DNA of 64,000 bases from Cloeon dipterum (taxonomy: Eukaryota; Arthropoda; Insecta; Ephemeroptera; Baetidae), in NCBI RefSeq assembly GCF_949628265.1, contig NC_088786.1, positions 18,745,681 to 18,809,680 on the forward strand, given 5' to 3'. Made by a program: the position numbers and the translations under genes. Below the pieces are notes generated by a model. It saw only the letters and a program-made list of their open reading frames with translations, had not been told where the DNA came from and did not search any database. The stretch's first letter is position 1. Each line of letters begins with the position of its first letter. Shown here in pieces: positions 1-19,360 of the stretch.

Positions 1-318
1 GTAGGGAACTGTCCACGGAACAGTCTTTAGAGCAGGAGGGAAATCATCCCACGGCTTACCAGTTTCACCACCCGATTATTAACACATGTTGGCCAAGCTA
101 GGCCCAAGCGGGTGGTTGCTGCAGCCTGGGGTGTGACGGGTCGTCACCTTGTGCATGCGTCCCAGGGTGATGCGGGCCATCGCGTTATAGTCCATGGCAG
201 CACATATGCATTTCGTTGACCTTTTTAAATAGAAAAATTTGTTGGTATAGCAAATATTTTCATCGATTTGAAGTGATTGCTGGGAAGGCAAAGGCTTCAA
301 ATGTTTGTTTTTTCACAG
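1..318. other. Intronic DNA before the first ZFYVE1 exon
   Basis: No exon is supported here on the plus strand. The segment ends in a pyrimidine-rich acceptor (TTTTTTCACAG, ending at 318). Bases 79-240 are richer in G+C than the surroundings and are open on the complement strand, but I recognise no protein there. It is probably intron of ZFYVE1, possibly with an old repeat fragment. Confidence 0.5.
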
Positions 319-3300
319 ATGTCTGCTAGCAATCTTGGGCCGGTCGTGATGATATTTCATCAGACACATTACACAGCGCCGTTGAATATGGGAGTAGAGA
401 AAAGTGCCGAGGAGCAGTTGCGCATTCGTTTTGGCCAGTCTGGATATGACCTCAGTGCCTTCAGTTCTTTGCGGTACGGTTAAATTTTAAAGATTTTTAA
501 GTAAATATTTTGTTCTTGTATGGTAAGGAAGTGAAAATTTAAAATTTATGCGAGGAGATTACTTACACAATTAAAGTCAATGCTGATTTATATTGTGATT
601 TGGCCAATCCCATCAGAAATTCTGGCTCTAGTATTACTTGCCAGTCATTCTCTGGCCACATGCGGCTATTCAAAATGAGTGGGAAATATTTTTAACAGTG
701 AGAGTCAATCAAGTACGAACTGCAGCACCCTGTTGGCTCTCACCTGTTCTCCATATACCTATTTTGCAACATTATATGAAATTTACTGAAGGAAAGCGGT
801 TGCTATTTTTACACTCGGCACAAGCAAATTTAACATCAGATCTAAAGTAAGGATCAGTTCGGGCCAGAAAAAAGCTAAATACATTAATTCTGTTTGCTCA
901 ACATTCGTAAAATGCCTTTTTTACCAAGTAAACGAATAAAAAACCTTTGAATATTGTTGTAACAAGTATTTGTTAATTTAAGTAATGAGTAATGCCATAC
1001 ACGTCAAATGAGAAAATCATACGAATTTTTGTCGTTATTTTTTGATAATAACTTGTTACATTGTAAACAAATAAAATATATTTTGTTAATGATTTTTCCT
1101 CATACAATTTTCTCAAATAGCTGACGGTTGAGATTCAGTTTTCCACACAGAGTAGAACCGTAGAACCATTCAGTTTTCCTTGGATTTAAATAAAAAATGT
1201 TATGGTGATGAAAATTTCAAATGCAGGTTTAGTATTTAACACTGGATGGTGTGGGATTCGCTCATAAATCACAAGTTAAAGTTCCAAAAATCTTAAATCT
1301 GTTAACTTTCGTCAGCCCTGAAAAATTAATAAATTTAAAATCAACAATTGCAGGTATGTTGGCGTCCAGTCGCAGGGCGGAATGACCAACTTTGATTCCT
1401 TGAAGACTATGGTGTTGAATGAAGTGGGCAGTACAGCTGCCCGTTCCAAGCGCGAGGTTAGGTTTGTGCTCAAAGCTCTTCGGGCGCTCAACGAAAAGTT
1501 CAGCGGCAGACTCCAGGACGAGCGGGACCACCTGTTCCCCGCCGAGTTCTTCAGCTGCCAAGCCATGTGCCAATCATGCAAGAGGAGATGCGAGCTGAGT
1601 ATGGGCCACCTCACGGACGGTGCCAGCGCCGAGCACAAGTGCGCCGAGATATGCATTTACCAGAACCAATACCAAAACGCGGTGTACCGCTGCATTACTT
1701 GTGAAAAAAACGGCCACAGAGAGCTTGCTTTCTCGACAGAAGACCAAAACTCTTGGATGGGTCCAGCAAAGTATGTAATATTTTGCTACAAAAACATGTT
1801 TTTTTCTTTAGACTTTGGTAGGGTTCGCACATCCAACGCTAAACAAGCATTATTAGTTGAAAGTTTAATTTCTTTAGAAATGGGTTTACCCCCCTGATAG
1901 CAAACAACTCGTGAAAACTCTGTGTTCCAATAACATGGTGAACGAATGATATGGACTCACTAGCCTCATTGGAGGAAGCCCATTGTCCAGAAAAGGAGAA
2001 GCTTGCGTTACTGCCCCTTCAGGTTTTTTTTAATCGAACGATAGACATTTGTCCCGTTTAATTCATTTACGCATGATGGAAAGGTGTAAATCAGTAATTA
2101 GCGAGTCTGGCTGCCGAAAGCAATTTTCCAATCCGAATAAGCTTTTTGCAGCAGTTCAAAAACCCGTTGAACTGAGAAATAACAAAATATATACTTATCT
2201 TTAAAGTTAGTCCTTTTTGCTAAAAAATCTGTGACGGTTAAAAATGGTGCTCTAAATTCTATGTAACTCAAAGCTCAAGTGGGGGCTGCAACAAAACAAT
2301 TTCTTATAACTGCATTTTTGTCAATTCCTGCGGATACTTCCGAAAATTCAAATTCAGTCGAAAACCAATAAGGGAACAAATTCAATGGATTTTTAGTAAA
2401 TTTCCTCATCATTACTTTGATTTGATGTGCAAACAGGTCCGTCTTCTCCGGAATGGTCCTGAACTGCAACCGTTGCGGAGTGATTTATAACAGCCGCGAA
2501 TTCTGGTATGGCAACCCATCGCCTGAGGAAGCTGGTACGGTGAAGACTGAGACATGCCACGTGTGGGACGTAAAGGCTTTCGTCCCAGCTGGTGTCAACA
2601 CGGCGCGTCGGATCGTGGACGGCGTGACCGTCATTTCAGGAGTGGTTGCCGAGGCGAGCAAGGCACCGACGGCGGCACTCGCCTCCTGGGCAGCAGATAT
2701 GATCGCTCCCACCTACTGGAAGTCCAATTCTGAGATTATCAAGTGCACGACCTGTAGCAAAATCTTTGACAATGATTCCTCTAAGCACCACTGCAGGTAA
2801 GAAGCACCAAAGTCTAGTCTGGAGAGTTTGAGATGCCATTGCTTTTTGTCAATTTTATTCCAATAGAGATTGATATTTAAAAGGAATATTCACAAGGGGT
2901 TTGATGGAAAAGGAATGTGCAGTGAAAAAAAGACGCCATTATTAAAGAAAAGCCATTTTCTTCACTATTTTTGAGACTATTAAACTGATGTTTTATTTGA
3001 TTTTGGATATATAAGGTTTTATTCTTTCAAAGCAAATTAAAATTTAGTCACATGACGTTCTTAAATATATTTTTAAGAGCTTGCTTAAGATTTTGTTATT
3101 CTTGCAGTGGTCAATACAATACCATTGACATTTTATATTTTAATTAGCTCAATAGGAAATTTAAATTACTGTTATTGTCTCAATTTAAATTTTAATCTTC
3201 ATACATTTTCAATGGTCTATATGAGTCATTAAATTTCATGTGTGGTAAAGGAATAGAAGATACCTTACGTTTTCTCTTGTATTTTTTTTTACAGAGCATG

Positions 3301-4713
3301 CGGTTTTGGCTTCTGCGAAAATTGTTCCAACTTTGAGAGGCCTGTCCCTGAGCGCGGGTGGGGTGTGAAACCAGTCAGGGTTTGCAAACCTTGCTCCTTA
3401 ATTCAACTTAGTGCCAGCGATTTCTCCAAGGAGAACCCCGATGAGGTCCGCGCAAGGAAGGTTGGAGAGTTTATGGCCAGTACCATCGCAAGCTTCGGCT
3501 CTGTCTTGAGTATACCCAAAGGTACCACCGCTGAATTTTAATTCTGTTTTAAATAATTGTATTGAAAAATACTGCGGTGTGAGAGGCGCACGCTGTCACA
3601 AAAAAAATTTATTTTTCCTCAACAATTTGTCAACGCTCAATCAGTCTGTACTAGTAGGCTTTGTCATAAATATTTTTCTACAAATTATTCATTTTACTGG
3701 ACAATTTTGGAAAACTCAGAATCTCACCTCCCCGTAGTGCAATCTAAAAAATATGGTGCTTTGGTTTCCTCTCGCTGAGCTTGATGTCCTAAAGTTCTAG
3801 GTCAAAGATCAGTTCTGTTAATTTTGGAAATTGGCTCAAAATCCTGATGTTCATAAATGTGATTTAAAGTTGTAAAACTACATGCGTAATAATTTCTGTT
3901 TTTATTTTTTTTTTATTTTTGGCAGAAATTTCACTTTAAAACACGTATTTCTTTCATGTTTTGCAAATGCAAGTCCAAATCTCGGGTTCTAACAATCAGA
4001 ATTTATAAAAATGCACACCGTCTAATTCTTCTCGAGAAACCCTTGATAAAAGAAAAACTCTTTCATAACGCTGGAATTTTGCAAATAATCCATGTATATA
4101 TGGTGTCATAATTTTGAGAAAAAGGCATGTGGTAGTATTGTAGATTTATTTGTGAATAAATCAAATTATGCAAATTACTTTTAAGCCCTGAGGAAGCATG
4201 CTTAGTTGTATGAAGTTTTGTAATTGCATCACAGGGAGTTGAAATACTGGATGTCTCGGTCAAAATTTAACCGTAAAATATGTTTAATAATAATAATGTT
4301 TAAAAAAATGCATGAAGCAAATCTTCTAGATCCTAGTGCAAATTTCGTTGAATTTGCTTCGCTTTGTGCCAATTTTGTCATCCGACCCGGGACATTTTGT
4401 CGTTTCATTTAAATGATTTAATTAAAAATTAAAACCGAGCAATCAGGCACTGAAATTAACTAATGCAATTTTTGTCCTCACCAAATTAGATCTCATAAAA
4501 AATTCCGCACAGCCAGACTACTGGGAACCAGATGCAGATATAAAAAAGTGCAATGTGTGCAGTAAGGACCTACCAACGCCGAAAGAGAAGACACACCATT
4601 GCAGGGACTGCGGCAAAGGCGTGTGTAATGCGTGCTCAAGCAACAAGAAACCGGTGCCCTACCGAGGATGGAACACTCAAGTCAGAGTTTGTGACTTGTG
4701 CTTCAAAGACTGA
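319..4713 (+). CDS. ZFYVE1: ZFYVE1/DFCP1-like double FYVE-finger protein (3' part, truncated by window start)
   Basis: Coding exons are 319-473, 1354-1770, 2437-2796, 3295-3521 and 4490-4713. They join in frame to 460 residues ending in TGA. The ATG at 319 is not the start: the exon begins exactly after an acceptor, and the sequence LGPVVMIFHQT aligns with the middle of vertebrate DFCP1. The N-terminal zinc-finger and P-loop NTPase-like parts must therefore lie upstream of the window. The visible part has a Cys-rich region (CQSC, CITCEKNG, CNRCGVIY) followed by two FYVE fingers. Finger 1 has KHHCRACG and RVCKPC. Finger 2 has WEPD, THHCRDCGKG and RVCDLC. All eight zinc ligands are present in each finger. 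The vertebrate protein binds PI3P and marks ER omegasomes, Golgi and lipid droplets; the same role here is inferred. It is convergent with NFRKB. Confidence 0.93.
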
Positions 4714-4808
4714 GTTTTCCTAGCTAGTTTTTTGCTTTTTAGGACATATTGTACAAATTCATCATACATTAACTTAGCTATTGTCGTGTAGTTTTTTACA
4801 GAAAAAAA

Positions 4809-4814
4809 AATAAA
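4809..4814 (+). promoter_or_regulatory. Polyadenylation signal of ZFYVE1
   Basis: An AATAAA lies about 95 nt after the ZFYVE1 stop codon, in a short AT-rich 3' UTR. Confidence 0.75.
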
Positions 4815-5280
4815 CTAAGTTTTTTAAAACGAACATGTCTCTTTTGATTGATGCTTTAAAACAATCACTGTTGTTGAATTGCTTTCTTTATTCTTCCATA
4901 TAAAAGCAAAATAGAATACACTTTTAATTCGATTTTAATTGTAACACCTGTTATTTACAAGAATCGCTTTGTTAAAATAATAAATATTTTCTAGTTTATA
5001 CTTCATCATCCACAAATATAATCGAAACGTATGGAACATCCATTAATTGTGGTCTAGGAACATTGGTTGGTTGCCAGCTTTGTGATTCTGGAAATGTGCA
5101 TTCATTCCACCAGCCCAGGGAGTAACCACCACTATTTGATCACGTAAAATTATTAAGCCGTGACAGTTTAAGGGCATACCATATTTATTTAAAAAAGCCA
5201 ACAACCAACACATGTTCACCATTTTTATTTCACATTGCAATATGCAACACCGAGAAGTTGATTACAGGAGTCGCGAGTCT

Positions 5281-8200
5281 TTACTCAGCGGCTCCGTCCA
5301 CACCTTTGGTCCCTTCCACACTCTTGGCCAAGTTGGCTTGCAACGCTGCACGGTTTGTTGGCGAGATGATCCTGGCGAAAACCTGCTGTCGCCCTAGAAA
5401 AAGATTGACATCCGTTTAGCAATAATTAACTGATAAGAATTATTAACCACAATGAGTCACGTAAATATGTGTCTGGGATTCCGAAAAAATGTACTTATTT
5501 TCGATTTAAAACTTAAAATAACTTATTGATTTAAAGCTTAAATATAGTTCAAAGAATAAAGAATTTTCCCTCAAGAGATGATTATGGGTTTCGTAGTTTT
5601 TTAATGTTTTAATAAAAAAAATATATAATCTAATCTGAAAGCCGATAAAATTTCCATTTTTTTCATATACGCACCATGATTTTTTTTTTAATTAATTTTT
5701 TCTAGTAAAACAAAAGACAATATGAAAATGAAGCTCTTATTGATCTAGATTTTTTTTTCAGACAGTTCAGTAAGTTTAAAACAGCCTGAAAGCATCATGA
5801 TCTATTAACGAATTACATTAACTTTCAAGACAAAAATGATACATATAAATCGATTTGGTTTGAGAAGCAGAGCATTCATGATTAGACTCACCTTTGGCAA
5901 GATTGGCGTTTGAGGCTGCCGCCTGAGCAATTGGAATGACGCGAATTCCCTGAACATTCTGCAGCGACTTGATGTTCAAGTTACCCCCTTGAAGGTTGGC
6001 CGGCAGCACAATTTGCTGCGCCCCACCCTGCTGCAGGACAAGGCCTTGGGGTCGCAGGCCGCTCGGTGAAGCCAACACCACAGTCTGATTCGAGCCGCTG
6101 CCACTGGTCAAAAAGAGATTCTGAAAGGCAAGTAGTGAGTAACTGGGCATGTGAAGCAAGCAGCCAATTCACCTGTCCCGGCGTTTGCGGTTTGCTGGCC
6201 AAAATCACCTGCTGACCGCCAATTGACGCAATGTTGTAGCCAGAGGTTCCACCTTGGATCGCTGACGGGCTCAGCAACCTGATGCCACCAGCCTTCACCT
6301 GAAACATACCACGTATAATTTATTAGAGGATAAAGCCAAAATCGTGTTTTTTTTTCTATAATTGTCTCGTCCTGGTATTGTTTCTGGGCTCGTCTTTAGA
6401 AAAATACTGTCTGGTACTATTTGGAAAAAATTAGTTTCATTGGGCATTGTTCTAGTATTATATTTTTAGACAGTTGTGGCGCCTTCTTTCCTAATAACTA
6501 GTTTGCATTAAATACGCTTCGCCAGGTGGCAGTACAAAGGTGTGCGACAAGCAGTGCACTCTTACTGCACCTTCTCCCCCACTGCACTATACGACTCGCA
6601 CCAAAGCAGTCGCAGCAAAACCGAGTCTGTGTATCTTTCTTAGGACTCAAATTATCGCAGATTTTCTAAAATAAAGTATTTTCGAAAAATGAAAAATGTG
6701 GAAACTTTAATATTGAATTTATCTGAAATTACATCCTATTTTGGTCCGAAATTTTGGCATAAAAAATCTCTCATCCAACCCTATAATGTAATGTGAAATT
6801 CAAAATGGTGCCTTAACTGTTTTGTTTGACGTGCCTATTACCCTTTGTTTTAAATATACCTGCCTTGACTAGTATAATTTCAAAGAATTTAAGCTTGTGA
6901 ATACATTAAATTATGTCCTTGCTTAGTTTTATTGCAAAAGAAACAAACTACCTGTTGAGGTTGGGCCAATCGAGGTCGAACGACGCTTCCAGATGATACA
7001 ACAGCTAGCTGGGGCACACCTCCTGAGCCAGCAGCAACGTGCAGAAACTGTGGCGACTTTCCTGTCGTTGCGCCTAGAACAAATAATTCCAAGAACAAAA
7101 TTAATTTTCAAAAATCGATTTGTTGTGGCTTATTTATTACCAGCTGAAGTGGAGGCAACGAGTTGCTTTTGCCCGCCGAGGCTCTCGAGAGAAATGAGCT
7201 GGCCCTGAGAGTTGGTGGCCACCAACTTGGTTACCAGTGGCTTGACACCTGACTCACCGGTCTTGAGTGCCGCCGCTGAGGTTACTTGGAAGCCGCCGCT
7301 CTTGTTCATGATCAGGGTGGGCATAGTGGCGCCAGGCTGACCTGACTGCGCTGCTCCAGCGGCAGCCAGTGATGACTGCTTGATGAAAACTGCCTGAGGT
7401 CGTGGAGAGCCCATCAGCGGGGCACCTTTCACTACAGCCACATAATTAATTAATTACTTGAATTAATTATTTAACGTCCCTCAGACTAAAGAAATTATTT
7501 TTTGCTTTTAAGGATAAAAAAGTATTTCTACAACCCTGGGTTGTAACAAAATCTGGTTTGAATTGGTTGTTACTAGTTTACTAAAAAAAGCCAACCTTTT
7601 CTGAACACTGAAAACTGGTCAAACAAATTACATTAGAATGAAATAGAAAATCAAACGACGTGTATGTCAAACTCAGTCCAACAATGATGTCATACGTGAC
7701 ACAAATTGGCAAGAGTCAAACCTGTGTTGGATAGGACTTTGATGTTCTGCGGCAACGTTTTGGCTGCAACAATCTGTGACTGCTGCTGTTGCTGCAACTG
7801 AGGCCTGGCAATCTGCTGCAGCAAGTTCTGCTGTTGCGCTTTGGACAAGCCGCTGTTGAGCAGTTTCATCTGCGACGGAGTGACGCCGACCACTGCCTTC
7901 TTAGAGATCACTTTGGCCGTCTCCACTTGCTTCTGATGCACCTGGAACGATTCAGTTAACAACATTCATTACATTTAACCTCATAAACGGCACCTGCAAC
8001 GGAGCTGGTGCAGTTTGTTTGGTCGGCTCTAAGCTTGTCTTGCTCAGCATTGCGGTGTTTCCGGTGGCAGATGAGCTTGTGGGGATTGTCCCGCTGAGCC
8101 TGTTCCCTGTGACTGGCGTCTGGGTCGGCACCACTGTTCTCTTTGTCAGCAACGTTTGTGGAGACCTTAAATCACAGTGAGACACGGTTGATTTGGTGAA

Positions 8201-14200: not shown

Positions 14201-14684
14201 GAGTCTTAAGCCTCTCAGTCTTGGAGGTGAAGTTACCATCCTTAAGCAGGGCGAAAAACTTGTGAAGAGGGTTTCCAAAACAAAAATTCGCGCCAGTGAA
14301 AAGTCTTCGAAGGGTAATGACTCTTTCTGCACTGCTGTTCTCTTCAAAATTAGGTAAGTATTTCTGCAAATTATTGAACCGTCAGATTTGATAATTTTTT
14401 TCTAACTATTATACCATAAGCAGAGTCCTCTGCTCAGAAGTGAGATAGTTGTTCCACATGTCCAAGGAGAAGAACTCATTGAATACTTCCGGACTCTCGC
14501 ACAGACCCTGCGGCAGCTCAAGTCTAGTGGACTGGTAGCAAAATTCTTGAGTTGGCTCCAATGTTGTCGGGAATGGCTGGGACTGGCTGTCACTTTCCGA
14601 TTCGAACGAAGACTCGTCAGACGATTTTTCGTCGTCTTCTTCTTCGTCATCCTCTTCCTCCTCAGAAATATAATTTGGATCCAT
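5281..14684 (-). CDS. NFRKB: NFRKB, INO80 chromatin-remodelling complex subunit (INO80G)
   Basis: There are seventeen coding exons on the minus strand: 14684-14415, 14363-13928, 13265-13060, 13009-12857, 12474-11948, 11687-11461, 10879-10608, 10553-10379, 9855-9625, 9569-9101, 8165-7994, 7941-7722, 7431-7141, 7073-6952, 6298-6173, 6120-5892 and 5393-5281. They total 4239 nt, or 1412 residues plus stop; the human protein is about 1300. After an acidic N-terminus comes a DEUBAD-like region (about 70-160, with FGNPLHKFF). In the middle is the HGFESVVGPLRG block. It is followed by the NFRKB winged-helix domain (about 745-835, with RLPNGEGTRSDIC and GALDRLHNEPDKCIKYD). The long tail is rich in Gln, Ala, Ser and Thr, with a polyQ run. 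In vertebrates the DEUBAD part holds the deubiquitinase UCHL5 inactive within INO80. The start follows an acceptor directly (CCAG|G ATG). Candidate AATAAA signals on this strand lie at 5229-5224, 5189-5184 and 4892-4887. Confidence 0.95.
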
Positions 14685-15103
14685 CCTGGCACAAAGAAAA
14701 TAACAAGTATACATCAGAAAATATTTACGAAACTGCTGGGGATAGAAAAAAATTCTTCTATGGAGAGGTCAACGTGTTTTCGTTTATTTATGTTTGAGAC
14801 TTGCGAGTTGAAATTGTCAAATTGGTTCAAAACAACGTACCCATCAAAAATGCACGCTGCACTAAGTGCACCTATGCAAGATCAATCGCGATCTCACTAC
14901 CTGCGGAAATAATCGGGGAAGGTAAAGGATATTTCCCAGGTTTGTAAAAAAATTGAGAGAAATTAAGATGTAAGTCCTGGCGCCGATTTTTGTTGTATTT
15001 AATTTGGGGGGACTCCAATGTTTTGGTAGATATGGCCGGCTCGACAGCATGACACAACCATGGAAGTAAGGTGGTTTGGTGCTAATTTCTTAGATTTTAA
15101 TAC

Positions 15104-15166: not shown

Positions 15167-15523
15167 CTGCAATGCAGATATTTAGACGGCTGTTAACAAA
15201 GACCGACATGGCGGTCGGAACAAGAACCATCTTGGTGGAACGAAGAAAAAGTTAGCAGCGATGCATGCCAGTAAAAATATTTACCAAACATTATAAGATA
15301 ATTTTCATTTCGATTCCAGTTTTGTTACAACCCCAACTCAAATCATCTCCATGAATACAATGGCAGAAATTTTAAGAATTTATAAGTTTATTCTATTTTT
15401 TTAAAAATTAAAAAATATTTTGAACCGGCAGAAGAGCGGCAACACTGTGCTCAGAGGTATCATGCATTTCGTGTTCCGCGTTCCAATCATCGTTTCTTGT
15501 TTATGTTGAAAATCATCTTACGG

Positions 15524-15532
15524 CCCCGCCCC
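15524..15532. promoter_or_regulatory. GC box upstream of EIF3F
   Basis: CCCCGCCCC, an Sp/KLF-type box, lies in the NFRKB-EIF3F spacer about 35 bp before the MITE insertion point. Without the insertion it would be about 60 bp from the EIF3F start codon, so it could belong to the ancestral promoter. Confidence 0.4.
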
Positions 15533-15566
15533 AAACCAGCCCCACTGATTTGATGACTTGGAGTTG

Positions 15567-15886
15567 GAGTGAAGCAGCCCCTGCTCACTCATATGGCGCG
15601 AAAATGCGCCAGCTAAGAAGTTCTGCAGCCACACACAGGTGGCAGGTCGATAGCTTTTTAAGCCAATCAGAGGCCGTCTCGGAGTTTGTTGCCTGTTACG
15701 CCCACGAAAAACTCCGCATATACGCCCCTCTTCGCCTCCCTCTGCCCGTGGGCGTAACCGGCAACAAACTCCGAGACGGCCTCTGATTGGCTTAAAAAGC
15801 TATCGACCTGCCACCTGTGTGTGGCTGCAGAACTTCTTAGCTGGCGCATTTTCGCGCCATATGAGTGAGCAGGGGCTGGAGTGAAG
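15567..15886. mobile_element. Palindromic MITE with 132-bp inverted repeats and 8-bp target-site duplication (hAT-like)
   Basis: The arms 15575-15706 and 15747-15878 are reverse complements over 132 bp with one visible mismatch (15694 against its partner). They surround a 40-nt pyrimidine-rich spacer. The octamer GAGTGAAG abuts both ends (15567-15574 and 15879-15886), which is an exact 8-bp target-site duplication. The element starts CAG and ends CTG. Eight-bp duplications with CAG...CTG ends fit a non-autonomous hAT element; no transposase is encoded. A small nested stem (TGGCGC/GCGCCA, 15594-15611) lies in the outer arm. The near identity of the arms and the intact duplication indicate recent insertion. 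It ends 14 bp before the EIF3F start codon. Confidence 0.85.
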
Positions 15887-15899
15887 TAGTCCGACCACG

Positions 15900-18800
15900 A
15901 TGGCGTTCAACGTTGTTGTTAAAGTTCATCCCGTGGTTTTATTTCAGATTGTCGACTCGTACGAGCGTCGAAATGCCGATTCCTTAAGGGTTATTGGCAC
16001 GTTGCTAGGTAATGCTTAAGAATTGCATGGAATAACCGTGACTGACACAGAAAAAGGTCGATATTTGGCCTTGTTTATTACTCGCATCTGGCTCATTTAG
16101 AAATCATAGCACAAGCCGCTAAAGTTTATAAATCATAATTTTTGCATAATTTTGCTCTGGTATTTGAATTTAAAGCGGTCATGAGTGTGACTGAGCTACA
16201 AAGCGAAATGAATTAAAGAGAAAATTGAAGATAATTATTTTGTAAAAATAAAAATATACTAGACACTCGCACCTAAATTTGATTATGATAGTGTCTGGAG
16301 TTAACGGCACACACCTATAATGTTAGCAATTTTCCTAAATATCCAGAAATAAATGTTGCAAAATTGAATCTTTAGATCATTATCGAATTAAAGTGGAATG
16401 ATAGTGATTTTTTATTTTAAAAAATGAAATTTCATCTGAAGTTAACCCTAACCGACCTATTTTTTCCATGAACTTCTGACCATAAGTGCCCCAAAATCCA
16501 AATTTTTAAGTGTTACCGGTTACGCCCTCTTTTTTAGCATAGGAAATGAATTGCTTCTAGGGTGAGAAAATTTATGAAAATTTAATAGTGAGAAAATAAA
16601 AAATAGTGCTTTTGAGTCTTGAAAGAAATTTTTTATTTTTTCAAAAATTGCAGATTTTCAAAAGGGGTCTGTGTTTGGCTTCATTAAAATTCACCTGTTC
16701 ATAGTAGCGTTAAATACTGCCTAAATTCTGAAAGCTGATTAAATTTCCAGTTTTTCCCCACTGTCAGCAGAGCCGATTCCTCACGAGTCCTGAGCTTTAT
16801 TATCTTAGCCATAACTACGGAAAGGGTATAACCTGAGACTCTCCCTCCACGCTCCCCTTAGGGCGCCCGAATATTTTACTTTGATTGCTTCGTTACAAAT
16901 AATATTGATCGTAATATCGTCAGGTAAAACCCTGACACCCCCACTCAGCAAAATTTTCTCAAATTTAACATTTTTTTTTTAAAAAAAATCGTCTGAAAAC
17001 TTCAGCTGGCCGTTAAAGAACGTTTAATTTTTTTGGGGGAAAATCAAAATACCCAAAATTAATTTAATTTATTCAAGAATCATCTCAGAAAAAAATTTTT
17101 CATTTTAATAATTTCAATGATTTTCAGAGGCAAATTCGGACCCTTATGGCTATCAGAGACTGCGTATAATAAATAAATTTTTTATTAATTTTCAAGGACA
17201 GATTCATTAGTTACCATGTGCGAAAATTTCAAATTTTTCTGATAATGATAACGTAATTAAAATGATAATTGAGTTGCGCGCCGGCCACCTTCTGTAATGC
17301 AACGAGAAGCGACGGCGTGAAACGCCCCCCTCTGACCGATCTGGGCGCTGACCGATCAAATTGTTTTAGCCAATTTTCTCCGAAATTTACAGTGCTAAAC
17401 TATGTTTTCTCACATGATTTGGAATCCTCTCATCGAGATCTATCGGACAGCCAGAGTCTTTTATTGGGGAAATGCGAAATTTTAGAGAAAATCGCGATTA
17501 CACAATTCCGTTGAAAATTCTCCATTTAAAACAATGCTAAGTTTGAGGCCGATTTTGTCGAAAATTTACAGTGCTGCCTATGTATTTTTTTAACTGTACA
17601 TGATTTTTAGGACCCAATGTGTACGCGTGTTAAAGGATTTGGCGGGGAAATTCACTATCATTCCTCTTTGGACTCTTCATCCTATATAAGCAATGCACCA
17701 AATTGATTTGTGAATTGTTGCATAATATTGTACATATAGATATTCAATTACATTTGTATCTCTTACTAGCCGTTTCTCATTACTCAATATTAAATTCAAC
17801 AGGATCAGTGGAAAAGGGTGTTGTAGAAGTTTCCAACTGCTTCTGTGTTCCCCACAGAGAACATGACAATGAGGTTAGTGTCATAAAATATTCGGAAAAA
17901 ATACTGCCAACGCTATCAAATTTTTGAGGAACCCTAACACTGTGTGATTCTTAATGTCAGGTGGAAGCTGAACTTGTCTACGCTGCGGAGCTTCGAGACC
18001 TCAATGCTCGCGTGAATACTCAGGAAAATGTGGTTGGTTGGTGGGCAACTGGCAATGAAGTCACCAGGCACTCGTCTTTGATCCACGACTATTACACCAT
18101 TGAGTGCCCGAATGCCATCCACCTTACCCTGGACACGACCCTGCAGGGCACTTCCATGGGTATCAAGGCTTATATCAGGTGAATGTTGTTTAAATCAAAT
18201 AAAGCAACGGAACTTCTTTTCATTACAACTGGGGATTATTTTAAAAATAATGTTTAATGAAATTTTCCAAGTTGAACTGTTTAATTTCTTACAAAATTTT
18301 AGATGTAGGGCAAAAAAGAGATGTGCCATATAACAATAAAACTACAGATAGTAGAAATATTAAACAAATTTGACATTTATGAAATGTCAACTTGGCTCTC
18401 TCACACATTTGGAAAAATCACTTTCAAATTCATAAATATGCTGCTGAGCCAACTCCTCCACAGTTTTGCTCAACTTCAAAATTTCAGAATCCAAGCTGCG
18501 TAATAATATTATTTAAATATCTTGGAGTGATTACCCATTTTTTCCCAAAGTTTAGTTCAGCCAACTTAACACTCATCAGTCAAATTTGTTTAATTCTGTC
18601 CTTGTGGAACATCTCGCTCTCGTTTCCCACTTTTCCCCTCTCCTGCAATTTGCCTTTTCTATATTCTATATAAATTAGATGTATTAGCTTAATTATATTA
18701 TTTAAAATCTCCTTTATTAAATTTATAAGTTGCAAATGAAACAGCATTCATGGCTAGGCATTTATTGATATATAAGTCAGTATTATAAATTAATAAATAT

Positions 18801-19360
18801 TTAATGTTGTTTTTGAAGAGTTCCAATTGGAACGCCCAGTGGTAACAACGGCAGCATGTTCACCACGGTGCCGGTCGAAATCACATGCTACGAGCCTGAA
18901 AGAGTTGGACGTAAGATGAAACAACCTTGAAATTAAATCAAATAATTTTTTATTGTGCAGTGCAACTCAGCTCAAAGACCATTGGAATCAAGAAATCAGT
19001 CGAGCCAGTTCATGAGCTGGCTCAGGTGTCTGAAGCCACTGGTAATGTCTTGTCCATGCTTGACACCGTGCTGGATTATGTGAATGAAATTCTGGCTGGA
19101 CGCAACATCTCCCCTCAAGACAACGCAGTGGGTCGAGCTCTTCTTGACATGGTCAACTCTGTACCCAAGATGACGCCAGAAGAATTTGAAAACATGCTGA
19201 ACTCCAACATTAAGGTACTGCCTATCTAATGATTAGTTTCCATATTAATGCATTTTTTCTTGGTTATATTTAGGACCTTTTGATGGTGATTTGCCTCTCG
19301 CAGCTTACCAAAACGCAGATTCAGCTGAACGAAAAACTCACTTTGTTGACAACTCTTTAA
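15900..19360 (+). CDS. EIF3F: Eukaryotic translation initiation factor 3 subunit F (MPN-domain protein)
   Basis: Exons 15900-16008, 17803-17873, 17961-18178, 18819-18910, 18961-19214 and 19274-19360 join to 276 residues plus stop, similar to insect eIF3f. It lacks the Pro/Ala-rich N-terminal extension of the human protein. The MPN domain covers about residues 5-140 ([48 protein letters not shown]). The JAMM HxH zinc ligands are absent, so a non-catalytic scaffold role in the eIF3 core is expected. The C-terminal helical part ([32 protein letters not shown]) is typical of the family. The start codon sits 14 bp after a MITE, so the 5' leader or core promoter probably includes transposon sequence. 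Intron 1 is unusually long for this region (1.8 kb). Confidence 0.95.
16009..17802 (+). other. EIF3F intron 1
   Basis: This 1.8-kb AT-rich intron has donor G|GTAATG and acceptor TTCAACAG. It holds a GC-rich block at about 17274-17360 that I cannot assign, and several A/T homopolymer runs. I see no nested gene. Confidence 0.6.

What the first reader, a model, noticed from the sequence alone, without database searches (positions are those of the whole stretch)
15567..15900. A young palindromic MITE separates EIF3F from its presumed promoter
An element of 304 bp with 132-bp arms (one mismatch) and an exact 8-bp duplication GAGTGAAG ends 14 bp before the start codon of an essential translation factor. 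The only GC box (15524-15532) is on the far side. Either transcription now starts inside the element, or the leader carries it whole. Exaptation of a fresh transposon as a core promoter or 5' UTR of eIF3f would be unusual.
Basis: partly seen in the sequence, partly recalled or inferred. Interest (0 to 1): 0.75.

Follow-up and report, generated by a model that had tools for sequence, protein, structure and literature searches.

The report
Young transposon beside EIF3F start codon
A recently inserted, hairpin-shaped piece of mobile DNA sits between the likely control region and the start codon of a gene that cells need for making proteins; a larger transposon that is probably its parent was found in the same genome, but whether the gene now uses the insert as a switch is not known.

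Summary
Window 15575-15878 is a 304-bp, almost perfectly palindromic element with an exact 8-bp duplication, 21 bases before the ATG of EIF3F. Its family has two lineages in this genome (55 + 58 terminal matches, controls 0). The window copy differs from its lineage consensus at 1 of 304 positions, and the single arm mismatch is in the consensus, so it is no sign of age. A probable parent was found: a 6,049-bp element with the same 18-bp ends, its own 8-bp duplication and a hAT dimerisation domain. Deleting its interior at a shared 8-bp word gives 303 bp, matching the second lineage at 297 of 303 without gaps. Three of 18 other independent young copies lie 77-143 bp before start codons of PFDN5, SF3B4 and NOP16, so a landing bias may explain the position. 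EIF3F is the closest case. A leader carrying the whole palindrome would fold at about -297 kcal/mol and contain upstream ATGs, so transcription probably starts in the element's last part or in the 21 bases after it. That step is inferred; no transcript data were available. Promoter exaptation is possible but unproven.

The parts
15575..15878 (.). hAT-type MITE, subfamily A, 304 bp, palindromic
15575..15706 (+). left arm (132 nt)
15747..15878 (-). right arm (132 nt), ATG-proximal
15707..15746 (.). 40-nt loop; holds the only difference from the subfamily A consensus (15719)
15567..15574 (.). target-site duplication, left copy GAGTGAAG
15879..15886 (.). target-site duplication, right copy GAGTGAAG
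15522..15532 (.). GC box GGCCCCGCCCC (CCGCCC core at 15526), presumed proximal promoter of EIF3F before the insertion
   Evidence: role inferred
15784..15790 (-). TGATTGG, inverted CCAAT box in the right arm; the word is in 20 of 20 A and 8 of 11 B copies; motif name recalled
   Evidence: role inferred
15849..15858 (+). TTTTCGCGCC, E2F-like word in the right arm; in 20 of 20 A and 1 of 11 B copies; motif name recalled
   Evidence: role inferred
15861..15884 (+). upstream ORF (MSEQGLE) from an ATG in the right arm
15900..16008 (+). EIF3F exon 1 (end by eye at the GTAATG donor)
17955..18179 (+). open frame with EIF3F exon 3 (MPN/JAB domain)
18915..19226 (+). open frame with the EIF3F exon that carries the MitMem_reg domain
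14412..14768 (-). open frame with the start of NFRKB, divergent neighbour

Best explanation
Shown: the feature is a recent copy of a MITE with 8-bp duplications whose ends are shared by a hAT element. Two MITE lineages exist; a sequence that matches the 303-bp lineage at 297 of 303 positions follows from one internal deletion, at a shared 8-bp word (ATGAGTGA), in a 6,049-bp hAT element still present in the genome. Suggested by a small sample: young copies tend to lie just upstream of start codons of housekeeping genes, so the element probably inserted into open promoter chromatin and landed at or next to the EIF3F start site. Inferred: EIF3F transcription now starts in the last part of the right arm or within the 21 bases after it, giving a short leader without the hairpin. 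Part of the drive may come from the right arm (inverted CCAAT, E2F-like word) and part from the GC box, which is now 312 bp further away than before.
For: Family and duplication: 30 of 40 fetched loci have a perfect 8/8 duplication, 19 of 20 in lineage A, the twentieth perfect after one shifted base. Age: 1-6 differences per 303-304 to consensus in lineage A, 1 in the window copy. Parent: 6,049 bp, duplication TTAGCGAC on both sides, 18/18 shared ends; Dimer_Tnp_hAT 23.5 bits, cut-off 21.4; predicted deletion product 297/303 ungapped to the lineage-B consensus of 11 copies. Landing: 77, 106 and 143 bases before the ATGs of PFDN5, SF3B4, NOP16 among 18 other independent A loci with about 3-kb flanks (identities). 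Short leader: hairpin -296.6 kcal/mol, z -30 for 15540-15910, against -19.1 to -29.3 for three stretches of 71-91 nt starting at 15820, 15860 and 15879; three upstream ATGs in the element. The ATG context CCACGATGGCG resembles the TISU start element; that TISU mRNAs with leaders of about 12 nt are translated without scanning was read in passages of PMC11900008, the TISU letters are recalled.
Against: No transcript, chromatin or population data. Among 11 lineage-B loci I recognised no ATG within 150 bp; 3 of 29 loci is weaker (P 0.055 at a 3% background, 0.175 at 5%). The 150-bp limit was chosen after looking; the 3% background rests on my own rough count of about 13 gene starts in the 64-kb window. 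A splice acceptor-like site in the right arm (15831, score 4.5) leaves a leader intron possible. The 6-kb element may have gained the palindrome from a MITE rather than given rise to it, and three other transposase pieces gave no Pfam match. The CCAAT and E2F-like words are in 20 of 20 A copies wherever they lie, so their presence says nothing about use at this gene. PMC11900008 also reports a structured 5' UTR (SERPINA1) that promotes translation (passage).
Confidence: 0.62

Rival explanations
1. Exaptation proper (a stronger form of the main reading): the right arm is now the main core promoter of EIF3F; NF-Y at the inverted CCAAT box and E2F at TTTTCGCGCC set a start near 15850-15880, and the old GC box is dispensable.
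For: Inverted CCAAT 110-116 bases and E2F-like word 42-51 bases before the ATG, both intact; only 21 bases of native sequence remain downstream; one match for EIF3F exon 3 in the genome; that EIF3F is essential is recalled.
Against: The same words occur in 20 of 20 A copies; no refinement of the copy; the native start may survive in the 21 bases downstream.
Confidence: 0.3
2. The old promoter or one further upstream works from the far side and a leader intron removes most of the palindrome, with an acceptor in the right arm.
For: Donor-like sites at 14922-15071 (best 7.8) and an acceptor-like site at 15831 (4.5); the EIF3F exon-1 donor scores 5.4; all with splice frequencies recalled by me.
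Against: The acceptor is modest, another of nearly the same score (4.4) lies at 15639 in the left arm, and the leader would keep an upstream ATG at 15861. These donors lie upstream of the GC box, so that box would not be the promoter.
Confidence: 0.12
3. The leader carries the element whole; translation is reduced or the hairpin is diced into small RNAs, making this a weak allele.
For: Only weak splice-like sites could remove the element; a MITE lowering translation from a 3' UTR, dependent on a Dicer-like protein, is known in rice (PMC5338036, passages).
Against: -296.6 kcal/mol hairpin and upstream ATGs before a gene with no close second copy seen.
Confidence: 0.12
4. The insertion is a rare or heterozygous allele caught by the assembly and has no lasting role (compatible with any of the start-site readings).
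For: The copy is very young and one assembled sequence cannot show frequency.
Against: None found; not testable here, since no relatives or individuals are held.
Confidence: 0.25

Closest known systems
Mar and Vege, hAT MITEs of Drosophila willistoni (PMC3517528, passages)
   Same: Short non-coding elements with 8-bp duplications; Mar ends begin CAG, has recent copies in or near genes and relics of a longer element with hAT transposase
   Different: Here the whole element is a palindrome with 132-nt arms (Mar 11-bp, Vege 12-bp ends); the duplication lacks the central TA of Mar/Buster; G+C 0.559, not AT-rich
P and Mu (TSS targeting) and Ac/Ds (TSS and TTS) (PMC7337890, passages)
   Same: Insertions concentrate at transcription starts of active genes
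   Different: Here only a small sample of loci, measured to start codons, not to mapped transcription starts
Stowaway-like MITE in the Ghd2 3' UTR of rice (PMC5338036, passages)
   Same: A MITE next to coding sequence that could act through the mRNA
   Different: There in the 3' UTR and shown to repress translation; here before the start codon and without any transcript data

Membership tests
hAT superfamily MITE | 8-bp target-site duplication | tested here: met
   30 of 40 loci perfect; 19 of 20 in lineage A plus one perfect after a one-base shift
hAT superfamily MITE | Ends shared with a longer element that encodes a hAT transposase | tested here: met
   L073: 18/18 ends, duplication TTAGCGAC, Dimer_Tnp_hAT 23.5 bits over cut-off 21.4 in one of four frames searched; the other three no match at E up to 1
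hAT superfamily MITE | Terminal repeats beginning CAG (rule recalled; Mar CAG(G/A)GG in PMC3517528) | tested here: met
   CAGCCCCTG...CAGGGGCTG
hAT superfamily MITE | Short and present in many copies | tested here: met
   304 bp; 113 terminal matches
hAT superfamily MITE | No coding capacity | not tested
   no separate test was made; an open frame from stop to stop runs through the left arm (15424-15786)
hAT superfamily MITE | AT-rich interior (listed as typical in PMC3517528) | tested here: not met
   element G+C 0.559, loop 0.575, window 0.389; a typical feature, not a requirement in my view
Ac-like hAT | Duplication consensus nTnnnnAn (recalled) | tested here: inconclusive
   T at 2 in 12 of 29 and A at 7 in 19 of 29 sites; 31 of 58 each when both strands are counted
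Buster-like hAT | Duplication consensus nnnTAnnn (PMC3517528) | tested here: not met
   T at 4 in 10 of 29, A at 5 in 8 of 29
P element | P transposase with the same ends | not tested
   considered because the duplication consensus resembles that of P (recalled); the parent found carries a hAT domain
Exapted promoter | Transcription starts in the element and expression depends on it | not testable with these tools
   no transcript or reporter data

The most novel reading that the evidence does not exclude
A MITE almost unchanged from its family consensus has taken over as the core promoter of EIF3F, and the same family is doing this at several housekeeping genes at once, so one transposon burst is supplying NF-Y/E2F-type promoter ends to translation, splicing, folding and ribosome-assembly genes.
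Probability: 0.15. Interest if true: 0.75.

Novelty: new member of a known kind. Interest (0 to 1): 0.42.

Why it matters
It gives a clean natural experiment: a housekeeping gene whose proximal promoter was pushed 312 bp away a short time ago, with the empty site readable from the duplication and with sister insertions at other housekeeping genes for comparison. It also shows a MITE lineage together with a probable hAT parent and the deletion that could have made it. If transcript data showed starts inside the element, promoter takeover by a transposon could be studied before selection has reshaped it.

Tried and rejected
Partner search: 13 hAT dimerisation matches. One of them, C1:38817570, has a lineage-B-like copy about 6 kb off, but BLAST found no other end of the family in that 8-kb stretch; the stretches of 1.75-1.9 kb on the 3' side of the other 12 hold no 9-base end with up to 1 mismatch. 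The parent was then found through 14-base terminal matches (the pattern was meant to exclude the MITE base and did not, so the list was sorted by hand). P element considered and dropped. Organism: the COX1 search gave one match below the family cut-off, so no mitochondrial contig was seen; five contigs of 33-43 Mb and ZAD zinc-finger and chitin-binding proteins in the flanks (names recalled) suggest an insect, possibly a parasitoid wasp, but this is unproven and nothing rests on it; a paper search for it settled nothing. An ATG 24 bases from the L037 copy looked like a gene start and was dropped: it meets a stop after 13 codons. 11 lineage-B loci with 1.5-kb flanks gave Cdc42 619 bases away and TPP2-, PEPD- and METTL16-like frames within about 1 kb (names recalled; the Cdc42 piece matches Ras, the TPP2-like piece has no Pfam match).

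Gene calls in the flanks used a codon score that I trained on 16 stretches of the window picked by eye, so gene starts without clear coding signal were missed; EIF3F itself did not pass the threshold. L028 has the flanks of L023 and was dropped from counts of independent loci. L043, counted with lineage B, proved to be the left end of the 6-kb element and was left out of the consensus and of the word counts. A first explanation for L046 (a CTG microhomology) did not hold when checked and is withdrawn.

Full report
Observation. The gene is EIF3F by sequence (eIF3f chains at E 9.6e-44, other MPN proteins at 8e-19 or weaker) and the exon-3 query has a single match in the genome. Upstream, NFRKB runs the other way.

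Family. The 22-base terminus has 55 + 58 matches with up to 2 mismatches in 190 Mb, with 0 + 0 for the reversed pattern; the list of places was cut short by the tool. I fetched 40 loci around such matches. Lineage A (20 copies, 19 independent) differs from its consensus by 1-6 positions. Lineage B (12 aligned, one of them, L043, later seen to be the end of the 6-kb element) lies 27 of 303 positions from A, and its members differ from their consensus by 2-16. Eight further loci, fragments or rearranged or gapped copies, were left out of that alignment. Perfect duplications: 30 of 40; ten loci fail the simple test, one of them (L021) only by a shifted base. The window copy has one difference from consensus, at 15719 in the loop; the arm mismatch is in the consensus, and 19 of 19 independent A copies have the same base at that left-arm position. 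So the copy is young, and the arm mismatch is not a clock. Further copies lie in clusters near 38-41 Mb of C1 and 30-32 Mb of C4; of these I fetched four (L018, L022, L023, L028) and one more.

Parent. Thirteen hAT dimerisation matches did not share the ends where I looked. A 14-base terminal search led to C5:8746389-8752437: 6,049 bp, TTAGCGAC on both sides, the palindrome at its left end and the 18-bp terminus at its right end. One of its open frames carries Dimer_Tnp_hAT, 23.5 bits against a cut-off of 21.4; three other pieces searched apart gave no Pfam match, and further frames were not searched. A second, decayed copy of this transposase end (70-85% identity in three pieces) is on C4. 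If positions 286-6031 are removed at the shared word ATGAGTGA, the product is 303 bp long and matches the lineage-B consensus (11 copies) at 297 of 303 positions without gaps, in the reverse orientation. The simplest reading is that the MITE is a microhomology deletion product of such an element. The reverse order, a MITE captured at the end of a longer element, is not excluded. Whether the parent is active was not tested; its coding region is in several open frames, which may be exons.

Landing sites. Of 18 other independent lineage-A loci with about 3-kb flanks, three lie 77, 106 and 143 bases before the ATG of PFDN5, SF3B4 and NOP16 (identities), and a fourth 255 bases before the first ATG of a sugar transporter (the choice of its start codon is by eye). 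With a background of 3% (about 13 gene starts in the 64-kb window, my rough count) three or more of 18 has P 0.016; with 5% it is 0.058; with 1.6% it is 0.003. Among 11 lineage-B loci I recognised none within 150 bp, and 3 of 29 has P 0.055 at 3%, 0.175 at 5%. The limit was chosen after looking. I take a bias to the 5' ends of active genes as likely, not proven. It agrees with what passages of PMC7337890 say of P, Mu and Ac/Ds.

Consequences for EIF3F. In the empty site the GC box ended 55 bases before the ATG; now it is 367 bases away. The strand 15540-15910 folds at -296.6 kcal/mol, z -30, and a leader through the element would have three ATGs of the element before the true one, plus one at 15553 if it began upstream of that. 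Stretches of 71-91 nt beginning at 15820, 15860 and 15879 and running past the start codon fold at -19.1 to -29.3 kcal/mol, within 1.6 standard deviations of shuffles. Passages of PMC11900008 state that structured leaders are generally thought to impede scanning, give one counter-example, and say that TISU mRNAs with leaders of about 12 nt are translated without scanning. The EIF3F start context (CCACGATGGCG) resembles the TISU word as I recall it, 9 of 12 letters by eye. I therefore infer a start in the distal right arm or in the 21 bases after it. The right arm offers an inverted CCAAT box and, in lineage A, an E2F-like word at plausible distances, but 20 of 20 A copies have both words. A leader intron using 15831 cannot be excluded.

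Novelty. A hAT MITE family with a probable parent and a plausible birth event; its position beside a housekeeping gene is striking but fits an ordinary landing bias. I made no search that could show that this family is unpublished, the genome being unnamed; six paper searches were answered, and I saw no title in their lists that is evidently about it.

Noticed in passing
L046 (C2:21066610-21067410): A lineage-A-like copy with only element positions 1-174 (172 of 174 identical), the right arm missing, yet a perfect 8-bp duplication starts directly after position 174. No clear microhomology at the junction; how the right arm was lost so exactly is unexplained.
   Followed up: partly
L035 (C3:7307540-7308848): A 709-bp copy with about 400 extra bases after the first 47 bases of the left arm; its outer flanks TGACTGCGAC and GTCGCAGTCA are reverse complements of each other, as if it sits in the middle of another palindrome.
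   Followed up: partly
L073 (C5:8746300-8752520), element positions 944-1939: Long internal direct repeats in the parent transposon, with minus-strand open frames rich in Q, G and S.
   Followed up: no
C1 38-41 Mb and C4 30-32 Mb of the genome: Clusters of copies of the family, about 91-99% identical to the window copy, perhaps in repeat-rich or duplicated regions.
   Followed up: no
L070 / right end of L073: Next to the right terminus of the parent lies a G+C-rich stretch with short inverted repeats (CCGGAGATCTCCGG), not part of the MITE.
   Followed up: no
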